The translations under genes and the position numbers were made by a program. Of a DNA stretch of 52,444 bases, positions 1,295 to 52,444 are shown piece after piece. The stretch covers positions 1 through 52,444 of the forward strand of contig JAUNJY010000031.1 in the NCBI GenBank assembly GCA_030535455.1. Reading direction: 5' to 3'. The stretch is from a bacterium (GTDB taxonomy: Bacteria > Bacillota > Clostridia > Lachnospirales > Lachnospiraceae). The notes below the pieces were generated by a model. It was not told the DNA's origin, did not search any database, and saw nothing but the letters and a program-made list of their open reading frames with translations. The stretch's first letter is position 1. Each line of letters begins with the position of its first letter.

Positions 1295-1391
1295 GTAGAG
1301 TTTAGCTCGAATTAATTAAAAATTTATAATATATTATAGACACAAACGAGAAAAGTGTCGTATAACATACAAACGGTAGAGAAGTTGTCGG

Positions 1392-1420
1392 TTGCAACTG
1401 CGCTACAACATTAGTATAAT
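1392..1420 (+). promoter_or_regulatory. Candidate promoter of the YhgE/Pip gene
   Basis: TTGCAA (1392-1397), 17-bp spacer, TATAAT (1415-1420). It implies a 5' leader of about 110 nt before the ATG at 1538. The -35 hexamer sits inside a small dyad (GTTG-N7-CAAC, 1386-1400). Confidence 0.55.
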
Positions 1421-1537
1421 CTAAATTAATCTAGAAAGCAACACAATGTCTATAATTGGACTGTTGTATGTGGAACTTAATTAAATATAGTGGTTTAGCC
1501 GTCCCGGAAAAAAAACATGTAGAAAGATGGTGTATAT

Positions 1538-4441
1538 ATGCTAAAGAGAGAATGGCAGAGTTTATTTAAGAATAAATTTCTTTGCATTGTCCTAATTGGT
1601 ATTATCACAATTCCTACAATCTATACTACTATTTTCTTAGGATCTATGTGGGATCCATATGGGGAATTAGAACATTTGCCGGTGGCTGTTGTCAATAAAG
1701 ACAAATCAGTTGATTATGATGGCAAAACAATGGATGTAGGGAATAATCTGGTTGATAATCTAAAGGATAATGACTCGCTTGCATTTGAATTCGTAACAGA
1801 AGAGCAAGCAGAAACAGGATTAGAAGACGGAACATATTATATGGTAATTACAATACCAGAGAATTTTTCCGAAAATGCAACAACATTGATGGATGAAAGT
1901 CCAAAAAAAATGGAGCTAGAATATAAGACAAATCCGGGAACAAACTATATTGCTTCGAAAATGAGTGAAACTGCAGTTAGTAAAATTCGCACAAGTGTTG
2001 CAGAAGAGGTAACTAAACAATATGCCGAGACTGTGTTTGATCAGTTAGGGGAAATCGGTGATGGTTTTACTGAAGCAACTGATGGAACAGAAAAGCTTGG
2101 TGACGGTTTAGAAAAGTTAAGCGACGGTAATGGAAAGATTAGTGAAAACTTAACTACGTTATCTGACAGCTCTTTGACATTTAAAGAAGGTGCAGATACA
2201 TTCCAGGTGGCATTAAAAACATATACAGATGGTGTAAGCTCTGCAAATGATGGTGCAGGCCAATTGAAAGCGGGTATTGATACATTAGCAGATGGTACAG
2301 GCGCATTAGCAGATGGAGCTTCACAATTAAGCGATGGAGCGGGTACATTAAAGGGTGGTCTCGATACATTAGCAGATGGAGCTGGAACATTAGCAGACGG
2401 AGCTTCTCAGTTAACTGATGGTTCAAGCACATTAAAATCAGGAATTAGTACCTATACAGATGGTGTGAGTCAAGTTTATGCAGGCACACAACAGCTTGTA
2501 GCAAATAACAAAGCTTTAAATGAAGGTGTTGCTACGTTATCCAATGGTGTAACAACTTTAAACAGTGGAAGTACATCTTTATTAGCTGGTTTAAAAACGA
2601 TGTCATCTACATTAGGAGAAAGCTTATCAAAAGACAAGAAAACAGACCTTGCAACATTACAGGGTGGTATTTCCCAAGTGAGTCAAGGATTAAGTGATTT
2701 AAATGCAGCGGTTTCTAGCGTTGACGTAAGTAAAGTGCCTACACTTGTGAATAAAGTAAAAGGCGGTATGGAGTCAGTTGGAAGTGATGCAACAAAAGCA
2801 GCAACTCATGTTGGAACTGCAATCGCAAAAAAAGCAGCTGCAAGAGAGAGTGTTGAGGCAAATGAAGGATTTAAATCGTTAAGTAAAGAAGATCAAGAAA
2901 AGATCCTTGCTGCATTTGATGTGACAGATAGTGAATTATCTGGAGCAATGTCTGATCTTAAAAATGCTGGTACAACGTTAACAGGCCTTCAAGAAGGGCT
3001 TAAGGAAAGCAATCTTACAGAAGATAAGCTTGATCAAATTGCAACATTACAAGATAGTGTGGCAAAACTTGAGAAGAATGGTACTTATGTACTTAGCAAG
3101 AGCTCAGAAGCAATCACATCTTTACAGACAGGCTTAGAAAATATTCAAGATGCGTTAGAACGTAAAGGAACGACTCCACAAACAATGGGATTGATCCAAG
3201 GTATGACAGCAGTAAGCGAAGGTGTAAAACAACTTGATACAGGCGTAAATGCGAAACAAGGTTTACAAGCAAGCGTTAAGACATACACAGCTGGTGTAGA
3301 AACAGTCAATGCAGGACTTAAAACGTTAAATGAGAACTCAAGTGCATTAAATAGTGGTTCTACAAAACTTGCAGGCGGTTTATCAGCTTTAAATGAAAAA
3401 GTACCAACATTAACTGGTGGTATTGGCCAGCTTCAAGAAGGTGCAACAAAATTATCATCAGGTTTATCATCTTTGAACGAAAAGGTGCCAACATTAACAG
3501 CAGGTATCAGTAAGTTACAAGATGGTTCTACTCAGTTAGCAGCAGGTACATCAAAATTAACTGCAAATAATGCAGCAGTTATGGAAGCAATCGCAAAATT
3601 AGACGATGGTGCTAGTAAAATCAGTGATGGTTCAGGAAAATTAGCAGATGCATCAGAAACATTAGGCGAAGGTCTTACGACAGCAAAAGATGGTGTAACA
3701 GAACTTAATACTAAATTAAGTGATGCAGCAGATGAAATCAATAGCAAGAAGACAAGCGAAAAAACCAATGAAATGTTCGCAACTCCAGTAGAAACAAGCG
3801 GTTCTGAAATGACATCCGTTGATAATAACGGTAATGCCATGGCTGCTTATATGATGAGTGTAGCATTATGGGTTGGCTGTCTTGCATTCTCTATTATGTA
3901 CCCACTTGCAGGTTCTGCAGGAAAAGTAAAAAGTGGATTTAGATGGTGGTTAAGCAAAGCAAGTGTTGCTAGTTTAATTGCTGGTATCCAAGCAGTAGTA
4001 ATGGTATTTATGTTAAAGAGTGTTCTTGGATTTAATCCAGCATACTTTGGTAAGACATTATTAATTGCCATTCTTGCATCCTTTGCATTTATGACAATCT
4101 TCTACTTCGGTAACTTATTACTTGGTAAAATCGGAAGCTTTATCTTATTGATCTTTATGGTACTTCAACTTGGTGGTTCTGCAGGAACATATCCAATTGA
4201 ATTATCTTCCGGTTTCTATAAAGCAATCCATCCGTTTATGCCATTCACTTACAGTGTTAATGCATTCAGAGCTACAATTGCTACAGGTGCAAGCATTGCT
4301 CAGCCAATTGCTGTATTTGTTAGTATCATTGTTGTATGTACAGGATTAACAATTATGATCTTTGAATATAAGGCAAAGAAAGTGATGGGACAAGAAAGCG
4401 TAGAAGCAATCGATCCTTTATTAGGCGAAATGGCTGAATAG
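1538..4441 (+). CDS. YhgE/Pip-family membrane protein with long extracellular repeat region
   Basis: A 967-residue integral membrane protein. One N-terminal membrane segment (about 12-32, FLCIVLIGIITIPTIYTTIF) is followed by the Pip/YhgE N-domain (VAVVNKDKSVDYDGKTMDVG). About 600 extracellular residues come next, with repeated DGxxxL / ADGAxxL / LNxGxxxL heptad- and octad-like units (about 190-720). The protein ends with five or six membrane segments (about 770-945) resembling ABC-2 type permeases. Relatives include phage infection protein Pip of Lactococcus and B. subtilis YhgE; their biochemical role is unclear, with transport or type VII secretion links suggested. The divergent TetR gene implies induction. 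The ribosome site is weak (GAAAGATGG), so the start is slightly uncertain. Confidence 0.88.
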   Translation: MLKREWQSLFKNKFLCIVLIGIITIPTIYTTIFLGSMWDPYGELEHLPVAVVNKDKSVDYDGKTMDVGNNLVDNLKDNDSLAFEFVTEEQAETGLEDGTYYMVITIPENFSENATTLMDESPKKMELEYKTNPGTNYIASKMSETAVSKIRTSVAEEVTKQYAETVFDQLGEIGDGFTEATDGTEKLGDGLEKLSDGNGKISENLTTLSDSSLTFKEGADTFQVALKTYTDGVSSANDGAGQLKAGIDTLADGTGALADGASQLSDGAGTLKGGLDTLADGAGTLADGASQLTDGSSTLKSGISTYTDGVSQVYAGTQQLVANNKALNEGVATLSNGVTTLNSGSTSLLAGLKTMSSTLGESLSKDKKTDLATLQGGISQVSQGLSDLNAAVSSVDVSKVPTLVNKVKGGMESVGSDATKAATHVGTAIAKKAAARESVEANEGFKSLSKEDQEKILAAFDVTDSELSGAMSDLKNAGTTLTGLQEGLKESNLTEDKLDQIATLQDSVAKLEKNGTYVLSKSSEAITSLQTGLENIQDALERKGTTPQTMGLIQGMTAVSEGVKQLDTGVNAKQGLQASVKTYTAGVETVNAGLKTLNENSSALNSGSTKLAGGLSALNEKVPTLTGGIGQLQEGATKLSSGLSSLNEKVPTLTAGISKLQDGSTQLAAGTSKLTANNAAVMEAIAKLDDGASKISDGSGKLADASETLGEGLTTAKDGVTELNTKLSDAADEINSKKTSEKTNEMFATPVETSGSEMTSVDNNGNAMAAYMMSVALWVGCLAFSIMYPLAGSAGKVKSGFRWWLSKASVASLIAGIQAVVMVFMLKSVLGFNPAYFGKTLLIAILASFAFMTIFYFGNLLLGKIGSFILLIFMVLQLGGSAGTYPIELSSGFYKAIHPFMPFTYSVNAFRATIATGASIAQPIAVFVSIIVVCTGLTIMIFEYKAKKVMGQESVEAIDPLLGEMAE

Positions 4442-4696: not shown

Positions 4697-4768
<72 letters not shown>

Positions 4769-12436: not shown

Positions 12437-12508
<72 letters not shown>

Positions 12509-16371: not shown

Positions 16372-16380
16372 AAAAAGCGT

Positions 16381-16460
16381 ATCAGGGGTGCCGTTTGGCT
16401 GAGAGAACGATGGTTCGACCCTTATAACCTGATCTGGATTATGCCAGCGTAGGGAGATCG
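16381..16460 (+). ncRNA. TPP riboswitch (thi-box) aptamer
   Basis: Diagnostic thi-box elements appear in order: GGGGTGCC, GGCTGAGA, ACCCTTATAACCTGATCTGGATTATGCCAGCGTAGGGA (in pieces at 16385-16455). It binds thiamine pyrophosphate and sits before thiC, the pyrimidine-branch enzyme of thiamine synthesis. A terminator hairpin follows, so it probably acts by attenuation. Confidence 0.96.
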
Positions 16461-16482
16461 CATTGCTTAGGAAACAGAGTGT

Positions 16483-25547: not shown

Positions 25548-26234
25548 ATGAGAAAAAAGATCTTTGCAATCTTTTTATGCACAAGTTTTTTAGTAGGATG
25601 TTCAAGTACGGATGTAATTAAACTGGAGAATACAAGTTCACAGTCACAAAGCATGCAGGAGCTTACAAACAAGGTGACATGTAAAGTAATTGGTACATAT
25701 GATGAAACAAAAGTAAATGCTACAGTGAAAAAATTAGAGGACAGGGCAAAAGTATATTCTGCAACGGCCAAGATTACTGCAAATAAGGAGGACTCTACCA
25801 TAACGATCGAGTTGCCTGATATTAAGACAAATGAGAAGGTACAAAGCATTGTACAGGATATTACAGGCGTTGGCGATATTACATTTGATGATGAAAATCA
25901 TAATACACTGCTTACCAGTGATTTTATTGCAGAAGCAACTTCTACCTCACTTAGTAACTCGTCAGACACAGCTTCAGTACTGGATGCTAATTATGCAATC
26001 ACCCTAAAGTTTAATGAGAAGGGTGCAAAGAAATTTGCTACCATAACCCAAGACAATATCGGAAAACAGATTTGTTTAAGCTGTGATAAGACCACAATCC
26101 TTAAGGCGACCGTACAAAGTGTCATTGTAGATGGCAACATCGTGCTTGATGGGTTTGCATCAAAAGAAGAAGTAGATTCCATTGTAACAAAACTAAAAAG
26201 TGGTACGTTAGATGTTAAATTAGAAATCGCTTAG
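25548..26234 (+). CDS. Lipoprotein with a stand-alone SecD P1-like domain
   Basis: 228 residues. Signal peptide with lipobox LVGC (Cys18). The rest resembles the extracytoplasmic P1 region of SecD: a base with KVIGTYDETKVNATVKKLEDRAKVY and a TITIELPDIK strand, then the head subdomain YAITLKFNEKGAKKFATITQDNIGKQI...KATVQSVIVDGNIVLDGFASKEEVDSIVTKLKSGTLDVKLEI. The order of motifs matches SecD (LKFNEEGAKKF, NIGK, V..PI.DGN, L.SGALPVPL). No SecD membrane helices are present. In SecDF this domain binds translocating preprotein; a lipid-anchored copy could aid secretion or folding outside the cell. AGGAGGAGA precedes the ATG. Function is inferred only from the domain. Confidence 0.75.
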   Translation: MRKKIFAIFLCTSFLVGCSSTDVIKLENTSSQSQSMQELTNKVTCKVIGTYDETKVNATVKKLEDRAKVYSATAKITANKEDSTITIELPDIKTNEKVQSIVQDITGVGDITFDDENHNTLLTSDFIAEATSTSLSNSSDTASVLDANYAITLKFNEKGAKKFATITQDNIGKQICLSCDKTTILKATVQSVIVDGNIVLDGFASKEEVDSIVTKLKSGTLDVKLEIA

Positions 26235-26286
26235 TTCAATTAAATAATGGTGGACATTAAGATGAAGATGTCCATTTAAAATATAA

Positions 26287-26585
26287 AGAGTTTCTGACAA
26301 TATCATGTTAGAAGCTCTCAGCTTGTCGACAAAGTCGCCAAGCTGTGGATGAAATCAGGATTTCATCCAGTGCCGAGGGAAGTGATTAGTGCTCATTCGT
26401 GCAAGTCCTTATAAAGCAGGACCTATTCGCACTAATCCGATATTCGAAAAGCGTGGTTTCCGAATATCGATTCCAATGAAAACCCAGGTTTTCAAATTTT
26501 TTTGTAAAGCGCGGCGTTGGAGTGAATGCAAGATTTCGTTTGTCTACAGTCTTAGAGTTTCTGACAATATCATGTTAGAAGCTCT
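26287..26585 (+). other. Hairpin-array element bounded by 32-bp direct repeats (candidate structured RNA)
   Basis: Two identical 32-bp copies (26287-26318 and 26554-26585), each an imperfect palindrome AGAGTTTCTGACA...TGTTAGAAGCTCT, bound a 235-bp core. The core holds five near-perfect hairpins: 26319-26345 (CAGCTTG/CAAGCTG with CGAC/GTCG), 26347-26368 (GGATGAAAT/ATTTCATCC), 26384-26437 (GATTAGTGC/GCACTAATC enclosing GTCCT/AGGAC), 26438-26469 (CGATATTCG/CGAATATCG) and 26477-26494 (TGAAAAC/GTTTTCA). The last is followed by seven Ts. The right-hand boundary copy is followed by TTTTTT and would terminate transcription. No ORF is credible. It matches no RNA class I recognise. Confidence 0.6.
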
Positions 26586-26587
26586 TT

Positions 26588-26742
26588 TTTAATACATAGG
26601 AAACTTCTCTTCGAGAAGCCTCCTTTTCAATAAAAAACGCCCTAGAGTGCAGGGCGTAGGATGCGCACTCACCGGAAAGGAAGAGGTCGCTTACGCGCGC
26701 CCCGGTTCGGCGCGAACAAAGTGTGTGTTCCACACACTTTGT
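26588..26742 (+). repeat. Composite intergenic hairpin repeat, copy D
   Basis: H1: AATACATAGGAAACTTCTCTTCGAGAAGCCTCC (in parts, 26590-26623) with a decayed 3' arm. H2: ACGCCCT (26637-26643)/AGGGCGT (26651-26657). Box AGGATGCGCACTCAC (26658-26672). H3: ACCGG (26671-26675)/CCGGT (26702-26706), where copy A has ACTCG/CGAGT, so both sides changed together. H4: ACAAAGTGTGTG (26716-26727)/CACACACTTTGT (26731-26742), perfect. It is directly joined to the hairpin-array element. From 26743 to 26870 I see only an A/T-rich leader and the GGAGG site of the next gene. Confidence 0.72.
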
Positions 26743-26870
26743 ATCTGAATGCGAACCAGCCCTATATCTAATGCAAATAAAAAAATCTGAAGAGTTTCGC
26801 ATATATTCAGTTTGGTACATGCATATATTTGTTACGTACATATAAATTTTCTTAGGTTGGAGGAGCTTGT

Positions 26871-45878: not shown

Positions 45879-45888
45879 AAAAAAAGCA

Positions 45889-46045
45889 AAGATAAAAACA
45901 CATTCCGGTTGGTAGTCCGGAAGCATTTCAGATAAATGATAAGCAGCGTCTGAATTGTCAGTAACCTGCCTCCTTTGGTTGTCCGATCTTTGAGTAATCA
46001 TAAGAGACTGTATAAAGCAGGCCTCTTATAATAAAAGGAGGGCTT
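45889..46045 (+). ncRNA. yjdF-motif riboswitch (azaaromatic-sensing), with SD-sequestering segment
   Basis: A ~155-nt structured leader directly before yjdF. Hairpins include TTCCGG/CCGGAA (45903-45920), CATTT/AAATG around 45925-45938, and ATAAGAG/CTCTTAT (46010-46030). CCTCCTTT (45969-45976) is exactly complementary to the Shine-Dalgarno AAAGGAGG (46034-46041), giving an obvious on/off switch of translation. The RNA family assignment rests on position before a YjdF gene, size and this switch; I did not match a full consensus. Known yjdF RNAs bind azaaromatic compounds and control translation. Confidence 0.8.

Positions 46046-51466: not shown

Positions 51467-51538
<72 letters not shown>

Positions 51539-52389: not shown

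Positions 52390-52444
<55 letters not shown>

What the first reader, a model, noticed from the sequence alone, without database searches (positions are those of the whole stretch)
26287..26585. All-hairpin element with identical 32-bp terminal direct repeats
A ~300-bp noncoding block between two genes is almost wholly occupied by consecutive near-perfect hairpins, bounded by two identical 32-bp copies of an imperfect palindrome. The right copy is followed by a T-run and would work as a terminator for the upstream lipoprotein gene; the left copy sits 53 bp after that gene's stop. One reading is that a structured element inserted into the terminator and duplicated it; another is a self-contained structured RNA, with a further T-run after the fifth hairpin. 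Two stems share a CAGG apex. I know no class with this layout.
Basis: partly seen in the sequence, partly recalled or inferred. Interest (0 to 1): 0.85.

Follow-up and report, generated by a model that had tools for sequence, protein, structure and literature searches.

The report
Jumping hairpin element that duplicates terminators
This is one of many copies of a small non-coding jumping DNA element, probably moved by a borrowed transposase, that inserts at the hairpin "stop signs" behind bacterial genes and copies the whole stop sign, so the stop signal should survive the insertion.

Summary
In detail: 26319-26553 is a hairpin-filled 235-bp block between two identical 32-bp terminator hairpins. 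It is a mobile element. Its genome holds at least 40 places with it, whole or partial. In 30 of 33 copies with both ends, the two flanks are the same terminator-like hairpin, a different one at each site, 17-38 bp long. A relative has the syntenic site empty, with one hairpin. The ends are inverted repeats. The commonest right end, CAGACTGTAGACAA, is identical to both ends of three IS1182-family insertion sequences from the same bacterial family, which also have palindromic duplications. Contig breaks in this genome show an unassembled multi-copy IS with such ends and hairpin duplications. Best reading: a non-autonomous, MITE-like passenger of an IS1182-type DDE transposase that attacks the 5' feet of an extruded terminator cruciform, so the whole hairpin is duplicated; published work proposed that pathway as a model. 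The interior hairpins covary, and a model of them hits 49 of 392 genomes of the order (own included), but G-U pairs are not preferred, as an RNA should show. Insertion into the terminator is supported; a self-contained RNA is not.

The parts
26287..26318 (+). left copy of the duplicated terminator hairpin (target-site duplication); its T-run is now replaced by the element
   Evidence: 32/32 identical to the right copy; one related hairpin at the empty site in G001
26319..26553 (+). 235-bp non-coding mobile element (MITE-like)
   Evidence: at least 40 places in the genome; ends defined by 30 of 33 two-ended copies with hairpin duplications
26319..26332 (+). left terminal inverted repeat CAGCTTGTCGACAA, 11 of 14 to the common right one
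   Evidence: read directly; exact in 39 of 56 aligned copies
26540..26553 (-). right terminal inverted repeat; commonest form CAGACTGTAGACAA, this copy AAGACTGTAGACAA
   Evidence: exact common form in 34 of 56 aligned copies; that form is 14/14 to the IS ends in L097, L099, L100
26320..26344 (+). hairpin 1, made of the left terminal repeat and its own inverse
   Evidence: helix 1, 97.8% of cells paired
26346..26369 (+). hairpin 2
   Evidence: I3; helix 2, 99.8% paired, 7 of 9 pairs never vary
26384..26437 (+). hairpin 3 with an inner stem
   Evidence: helices 3 and 4; 8 of 12 pairs with changes on both sides
26438..26469 (+). hairpin 4, apex CGAAAAGCG(C/T)GGTTTCCG
   Evidence: helix 5; 5 of 12 pairs with changes on both sides; apex exact in 36 of 56 copies and in L288 and L290 of another family
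26478..26493 (+). hairpin 5
   Evidence: helix 6; 3 of 7 pairs with changes on both sides; the window row is misaligned by one column there
26497..26503 (+). run of seven T after hairpin 5, private to this copy
   Evidence: 1 of 56 aligned copies
26554..26585 (+). right copy of the terminator hairpin, followed by the retained T-run 26586-26590

Best explanation
The block is a non-autonomous DNA transposon (MITE-like) with ends recognised by an IS1182-family DDE transposase supplied in trans. The transposase joins the element's 3' ends to the 5' feet of the hairpins extruded on both strands of an intrinsic terminator. Gap repair then copies the whole hairpin, so the target-site duplication is the terminator hairpin itself and its length follows the hairpin. 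The left copy loses its U-tract and the right copy keeps it, so upstream transcripts should read through the element and still stop. Each insertion leaves two hairpins, so the target is renewed and can be hit again. Shown: dispersed copies, hairpin duplications, an empty site, ends shared with IS1182-type IS, like duplications at some of those IS. Inferred: the cruciform intermediate, trans mobilisation, read-through and termination.
For: At least 40 places in G000 (40 of 114 candidates scored). 30 of 33 two-ended copies have matching hairpin flanks, 17-38 bp, against 7 of 1056 mismatched flank pairs. 9 of 12 elements in G001 and 15 of 17 distinct in G003. Empty site with one hairpin in G001. 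IS1182-family loci with palindromic duplications: L095, L097, L099, L100, L101, L104, 6 of 32 examined; L097, L099 and L100 carry CAGACTGTAGACAA at both ends. In G000, 13 contig ends stop about 50 bp inside one of two IS end types; five pairs, each one of either type, share one hairpin in reverse complement. In G069 an intact IS1182 and this element sit at one terminator with three hairpin copies. Wan et al. (PMC5678879, section 29 part 1) draw this duplication as pathway b.
Against: No IS1182 match in the assemblies of G000 or G001, and only a broken one, apparently with other ends, in G003; the IS body in G000 is unassembled, so its family is inferred from its ends. 26 of 32 IS1182 loci showed no palindromic duplication in my screens. 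IS1182 matches are common in the bacterial family (167 of 299 genomes), while the model of the element found, within that family, only the own genome among those sampled. The studied member IS1272 replaces its stem-loop instead of duplicating it (PMC5678879). Three two-ended G000 copies (L042, L045, L069), 3 of 12 in G001 and 2 of 17 in G003 lack the duplication.
Confidence: 0.88

Rival explanations
1. A structured regulatory or small RNA (for example a 3'-UTR element) whose RNA function is what selection keeps; mobility is secondary.
For: 97.8% of cells paired and 18 of 50 pairs with changes on both sides; four of five measures were reached by 0 of 500 shuffles. Orientation: neighbouring genes (+,+) in 24 and (-,-) in 5 of 51 insertions (two-sided binomial 0.0005). 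Model R1 hits 49 of 392 genomes of the order, own included.
Against: G-U is not preferred over A-C among imperfect pairs: 11 against 26 cells (14 of the 26 in one column pair), 11 kinds each. The fifth measure, further pair types, was reached by 167 of 500 shuffles. No Rfam family at the element in the window or in 16 related loci. Perfect arms can also be kept by template switching at quasi-palindromes (recalled). Orientation can come from asymmetry of the target.
Confidence: 0.2
2. An ordinary deletion derivative of an IS with the ends kept and an arbitrary filling; the hairpins mean nothing.
For: With four IS1182 elements it shares the 14-bp ends (three of them) and otherwise only matches at E 0.28. 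Internally deleted copies exist (L077, L083).
Against: The architecture recurs in several families and the hairpin-4 apex is shared between families; arms covary.
Confidence: 0.12
3. A group IIC-intron-like RNA element that inserts behind terminators by retrotransposition.
For: Both sit at intrinsic terminators (group IIC habit recalled).
Against: Whole-hairpin duplication and inverted terminal repeats are features of DNA transposition; no Rfam intron match.
Confidence: 0.02
4. IS200/IS605- or REP/RAYT-type single-strand transposition using the hairpins.
For: Hairpins at one end and at the target.
Against: That mechanism makes no target duplication (recalled); here 30 of 33 two-ended copies have one. 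No search for a Y1 transposase was made.
Confidence: 0.03

Closest known systems
IS1182 family (IS1272 of staphylococci, PMC5678879; duplications of 2-60 bp quoted in PMC7335449, passages)
   Same: Target is a stem-loop of any sequence; DDE transposase; terminal inverted repeats; variable duplication length in the family
   Different: IS1272 replaces the stem-loop and leaves no duplication; here the whole hairpin is duplicated, and the element codes for nothing
Bacterial MITEs (review PMC10969869, passages)
   Same: Short, non-coding, inverted ends, target duplication, many copies, hairpin-rich
   Different: The duplication is an entire terminator hairpin of variable length; the interior has covarying hairpins that recur across families; one end is itself a hairpin
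Pneumococcal SPRITE, BOX and RUP repeats (PMC3049150 seen only in listings; PMC10969869, passages)
   Same: Small structured intergenic repeats; SPRITE is terminator-like
   Different: Here the terminator belongs to the host site and is duplicated, not carried
Group IIC introns (recalled)
   Same: Insert behind intrinsic terminators
   Different: RNA splicing elements without target duplication; no Rfam intron match here

Membership tests
MITE | short, no protein-coding gene | tested here: met
   235 bp; no ORF of 80 aa or more lies in it; a minus-strand ORF 26575-26841 touches only the right hairpin copy
MITE | terminal inverted repeats | tested here: met
   11 of 14 positions between the common forms of the two ends
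MITE | target-site duplication | tested here: met
   30 of 33 two-ended G000 copies
MITE | many dispersed copies | tested here: met
   at least 40 places
MITE | autonomous partner with the same ends in the same genome | tested here: inconclusive
   of 16 contig ends L127-L142, 13 stop inside an IS end (6 of one type, 7 of the other) and 3 inside the element; five IS pairs matched by hairpin; the IS body is unassembled
IS1182-family mobiliser | transposase matches NF033551 and DDE_Tnp_1 | tested here: met
   in IS from other genomes: NF033551 for L095 and L097, L099, L100; Pfam tested for L095 and L097 only
IS1182-family mobiliser | transposase present in the own genome | tested here: not met
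   0 matches in the G000 assembly; 93.6% complete, 126 contigs, repeats unassembled
IS1182-family mobiliser | palindromic target | tested here: met
   6 of 32 IS1182 loci examined have palindromic duplications; not shown for the other 26
IS1634 family | transposase match NF033559 | tested here: not met
   0 matches in G000
Rfam RNA family | score above gathering threshold | tested here: not met
   no match at the element in the window or in 16 related loci
Group II intron | domain V and splicing | tested here: not met
   no Rfam intron match up to E 10 in 26200-26870; splicing itself not testable

The most novel reading that the evidence does not exclude
A long-lived bacterial counterpart of a SINE: a structured passenger with its own conserved interior that depends on IS1182-type transposases, spreads through several families of Clostridia, uses terminators as self-renewing safe harbours and adds a conserved structured tail to the host gene's transcript. 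The interior hairpins would have a job of their own, as folded DNA in transposition or as RNA in the tail.
Probability: 0.35. Interest if true: 0.8.

Novelty: new variant of a known kind. Interest (0 to 1): 0.62.

Why it matters
[quoted passage not shown] That makes recognition of DNA cruciforms by a DDE transposase testable. It also suggests how a mobile element can insert next to genes while restoring the terminator it hits, and it adds a structured element family that Rfam does not hold.

Tried and rejected
IS1634 (remembered for long variable duplications): no transposase in G000. Known RNA family: none. Self-contained RNA with an internal terminator: the T-run is private to this copy. Retro-element or single-strand transposition: rejected on the duplications. 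A first alignment with flanks was cut and of little use. The palindrome filter flagged 2 of 29 loci (L095, L101); I added L104 by eye from its printed repeat, and L097, L099 and L100 come (the filter missed L097 and L104 because a repeat edge was off by a base or more, and found no such repeat at L099 and L100). Literature searches listed no description of this element; only openly licensed papers are held.

Rows dropped and samples: of 40 G000 places 7 lacked an end. One search used a stricter end pattern: 28 G000 elements, 27 with duplication; 20 loci given for G001 and 23 for G003, chosen by end patterns; G003 printed 18 rows, L250 twice. The alignment used 56 of 57 elements; I left out L069 (no duplication, odd left end). 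Of the IS1182 matches in 167 genomes, 30 loci were fetched and looked at, the best-scoring ones. In one search, 3 of 32 loci had too short flanks. One search printed 11 rows; I take 4 as a neighbouring element's end and 7 as chance matches in the hairpin or flank.

Full report
What was checked. The window holds two identical 32-nt copies at 26287-26318 and 26554-26585, the first 52 bases behind a 228-aa lipoprotein ORF. The block folds far better than shuffles on both strands (z -7.9 and -7.0).

It is a repeat family. A search of the window's own assembly gave 40 strong places, all that were scored of 114 candidates. I fetched the 39 others. The flanks show hairpins that differ from site to site. 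Of 33 copies with both ends recognised, 30 have matching flanks that reach the left edge of the element; the repeats are 17-38 bp long. Mismatched pairs of flanks reach that score in 7 of 1056. In 23 of these 30 the first base of the printed repeat pairs with its last; in the other 7 the printed edge does not. In the same genus, 9 of 12 elements in G001 and 15 of 17 distinct ones in G003 have such repeats.

Empty site. In G001 the same two genes lie 148 nt apart instead of 636, with one related hairpin and T-run between them and no element. The record JAUNRX010000029.1 (MAG isolate S3R_St_47) has the same sequence there. Of the 488 extra bases in the window, 267 are the element and one hairpin copy; most of the rest is another repeat. 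This is the only site so tested.

Ends and partner. The element's ends are imperfect inverted repeats, CAGCTTGTCGACAA and CAGACTGTAGACAA in their common forms (39 and 34 of 56 copies exact), 11 of 14 alike. IS1634, my first guess, has no transposase in G000. IS1182 has none in G000 or G001, a broken one in G003 and an intact one in G069, a genome of another family of the order. In G069 that IS sits at a terminator shared with the structured element: hairpin, IS, hairpin, element, hairpin. A search of 299 genomes of the family found IS1182 matches in 167. I examined the 30 loci fetched there and the two. Six of these 32 have palindromic duplications at the IS edges: L095, L097, L099, L100, L101, L104. 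L097, L099 and L100 carry CAGACTGTAGACAA at both ends. The L097 and L095 transposases have DDE_Tnp_1 and DUF772 domains and are 46% identical. Beyond the 14-bp ends the element shares with these IS only matches at E 0.28.

The partner in the own genome. Many G000 contigs break about 50 bp inside a sequence starting with CAGACTGTAGACAA or CAGACCGTAGACAA. Of 16 such ends fetched, 13 belong to two IS end types (6 and 7) and 3 to the element itself. Five pairs of contig ends, each one of either type, carry one hairpin in exact reverse complement, 21-28 bp: C5/C110, C7/C106, C57/C20, C71/C34, C51/C101; a sixth pair (C43/C95) flanks a copy of the element. An unassembled multi-copy IS with hairpin duplications would leave this. 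Its transposase was not seen.

Mechanism. Wan et al. 2017 (PMC5678879; outline with abstract, passages and part 1 of section 29 seen) report that IS1272, an IS1182-family member, targets stem-loops and replaces them without duplication. [quoted passage not shown] A paper on IS982 (PMC7335449, passages) quotes duplications of 2-60 bp for IS1182. The present duplications fit that pathway. That the hairpin is extruded at the time of attack is inference. The left copy is followed by the element and not by T; the right copy is followed on average by 5.6 T in 8 bases. So termination should be preserved; this too is inference. At three G000 sites (L046, L051, L062) and one in G003 (L235) an end of a second element lies directly left of the duplication, so one terminator was probably hit more than once.

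Orientation. Among 51 elements with duplications, neighbouring genes of 100 aa or more are (+,+) in 24, (-,-) in 5, convergent in 12, divergent in none; the other 10 had no gene within 500 bp on one or both sides. Two-sided binomial for 24 against 5 is 0.0005. A first count over the 40 G000 places with shorter ORFs gave 18 (+,+), 5 (-,-), 10 convergent, 1 divergent. T after the right copy outnumbers A before the left one in 17 of 30, the reverse in 4, tie in 9. Insertion preference and later selection are both possible. The gene calls are crude longest-ORF calls.

The interior. In 56 aligned copies from three genomes, 97.8% of cells in 50 pairs are paired and 18 pairs have changes on both sides; four of five measures were reached by 0 of 500 shuffles, the fifth (further pair types) by 167, and slid structures fall far below. 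Most of these changes are one split between G003 and the other two genomes, so independent events are nearer ten than the 182 cells. Against RNA: among imperfect pairs G-U makes 11 cells and A-C 26 (14 of them one column pair), 11 kinds each. RNA selection should favour G-U. Folded DNA, or arm-to-arm template switching, explains this better.

Spread. A covariance model of the element hits 49 of 392 genomes of the order, the own genome included, in families f1 (own genome only), f11, f16 and f17, and 5 of 391 in a sample of the class, three of them from the order. Of the two outside, L292 has a 23-bp hairpin duplication and L293 does not. Of 21 distant loci, 12 have flank repeats scoring 11 or more, against 6 of 420 mismatched pairs. 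Part of the model's power comes from the conserved left hairpin, so some hits share little else. The apex CGAAAAGCGCGGTTTCCG of hairpin 4 recurs in two loci of family f17 (L288, L290), which themselves show no flank repeat. No Rfam family matches.

Organism. Many of the named relatives of the neighbouring protein are Lachnospiraceae, so that family is likely; this is inference.

Verdict. A real and well-defined mobile element: a new structured, terminator-duplicating variant of MITE that most likely depends on an IS1182-type transposase. The role of the conserved interior is open.

Noticed in passing
window 26586-26745: A second dispersed repeat (near its start TAGGAAACTTCTC, then an AACGCCCT...AGGGCG hairpin and GGATGCGCACTCAC): 72 matches printed with 40 of 172 candidates scored, in places in tandem at about 185 bp, in places next to this element; its nature was not worked out.
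   Followed up: partly
G000 sites L046, L051, L062; G003 L235: Ends of a second element directly left of the duplicated hairpin: probably repeated insertion at one terminator.
   Followed up: partly
L095 (G069) 1388-3165: Intact IS1182-family IS and the structured element in series at one terminator, with three hairpin copies.
   Followed up: yes
L096 (G003) about 1300-3130: Broken IS1182-type transposase region directly against the right end of a copy of the element, apparently with other ends.
   Followed up: no
IS ends at 13 G000 contig breaks (within L127-L142) and in L095, L097, L099, L100: Directly inside their terminal repeats these IS carry hairpins of their own, several with a T-run.
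   Followed up: no
window 4697-4768, 12437-12508, 51467-51538, 52390-52444: Four tRNA matches, three with the same score (68.5 bits), the last cut by the window end; possibly identical genes.
   Followed up: no
window 45882-46002 and 16374-16472: azaaromatic (yjdF) and TPP riboswitches.
   Followed up: no
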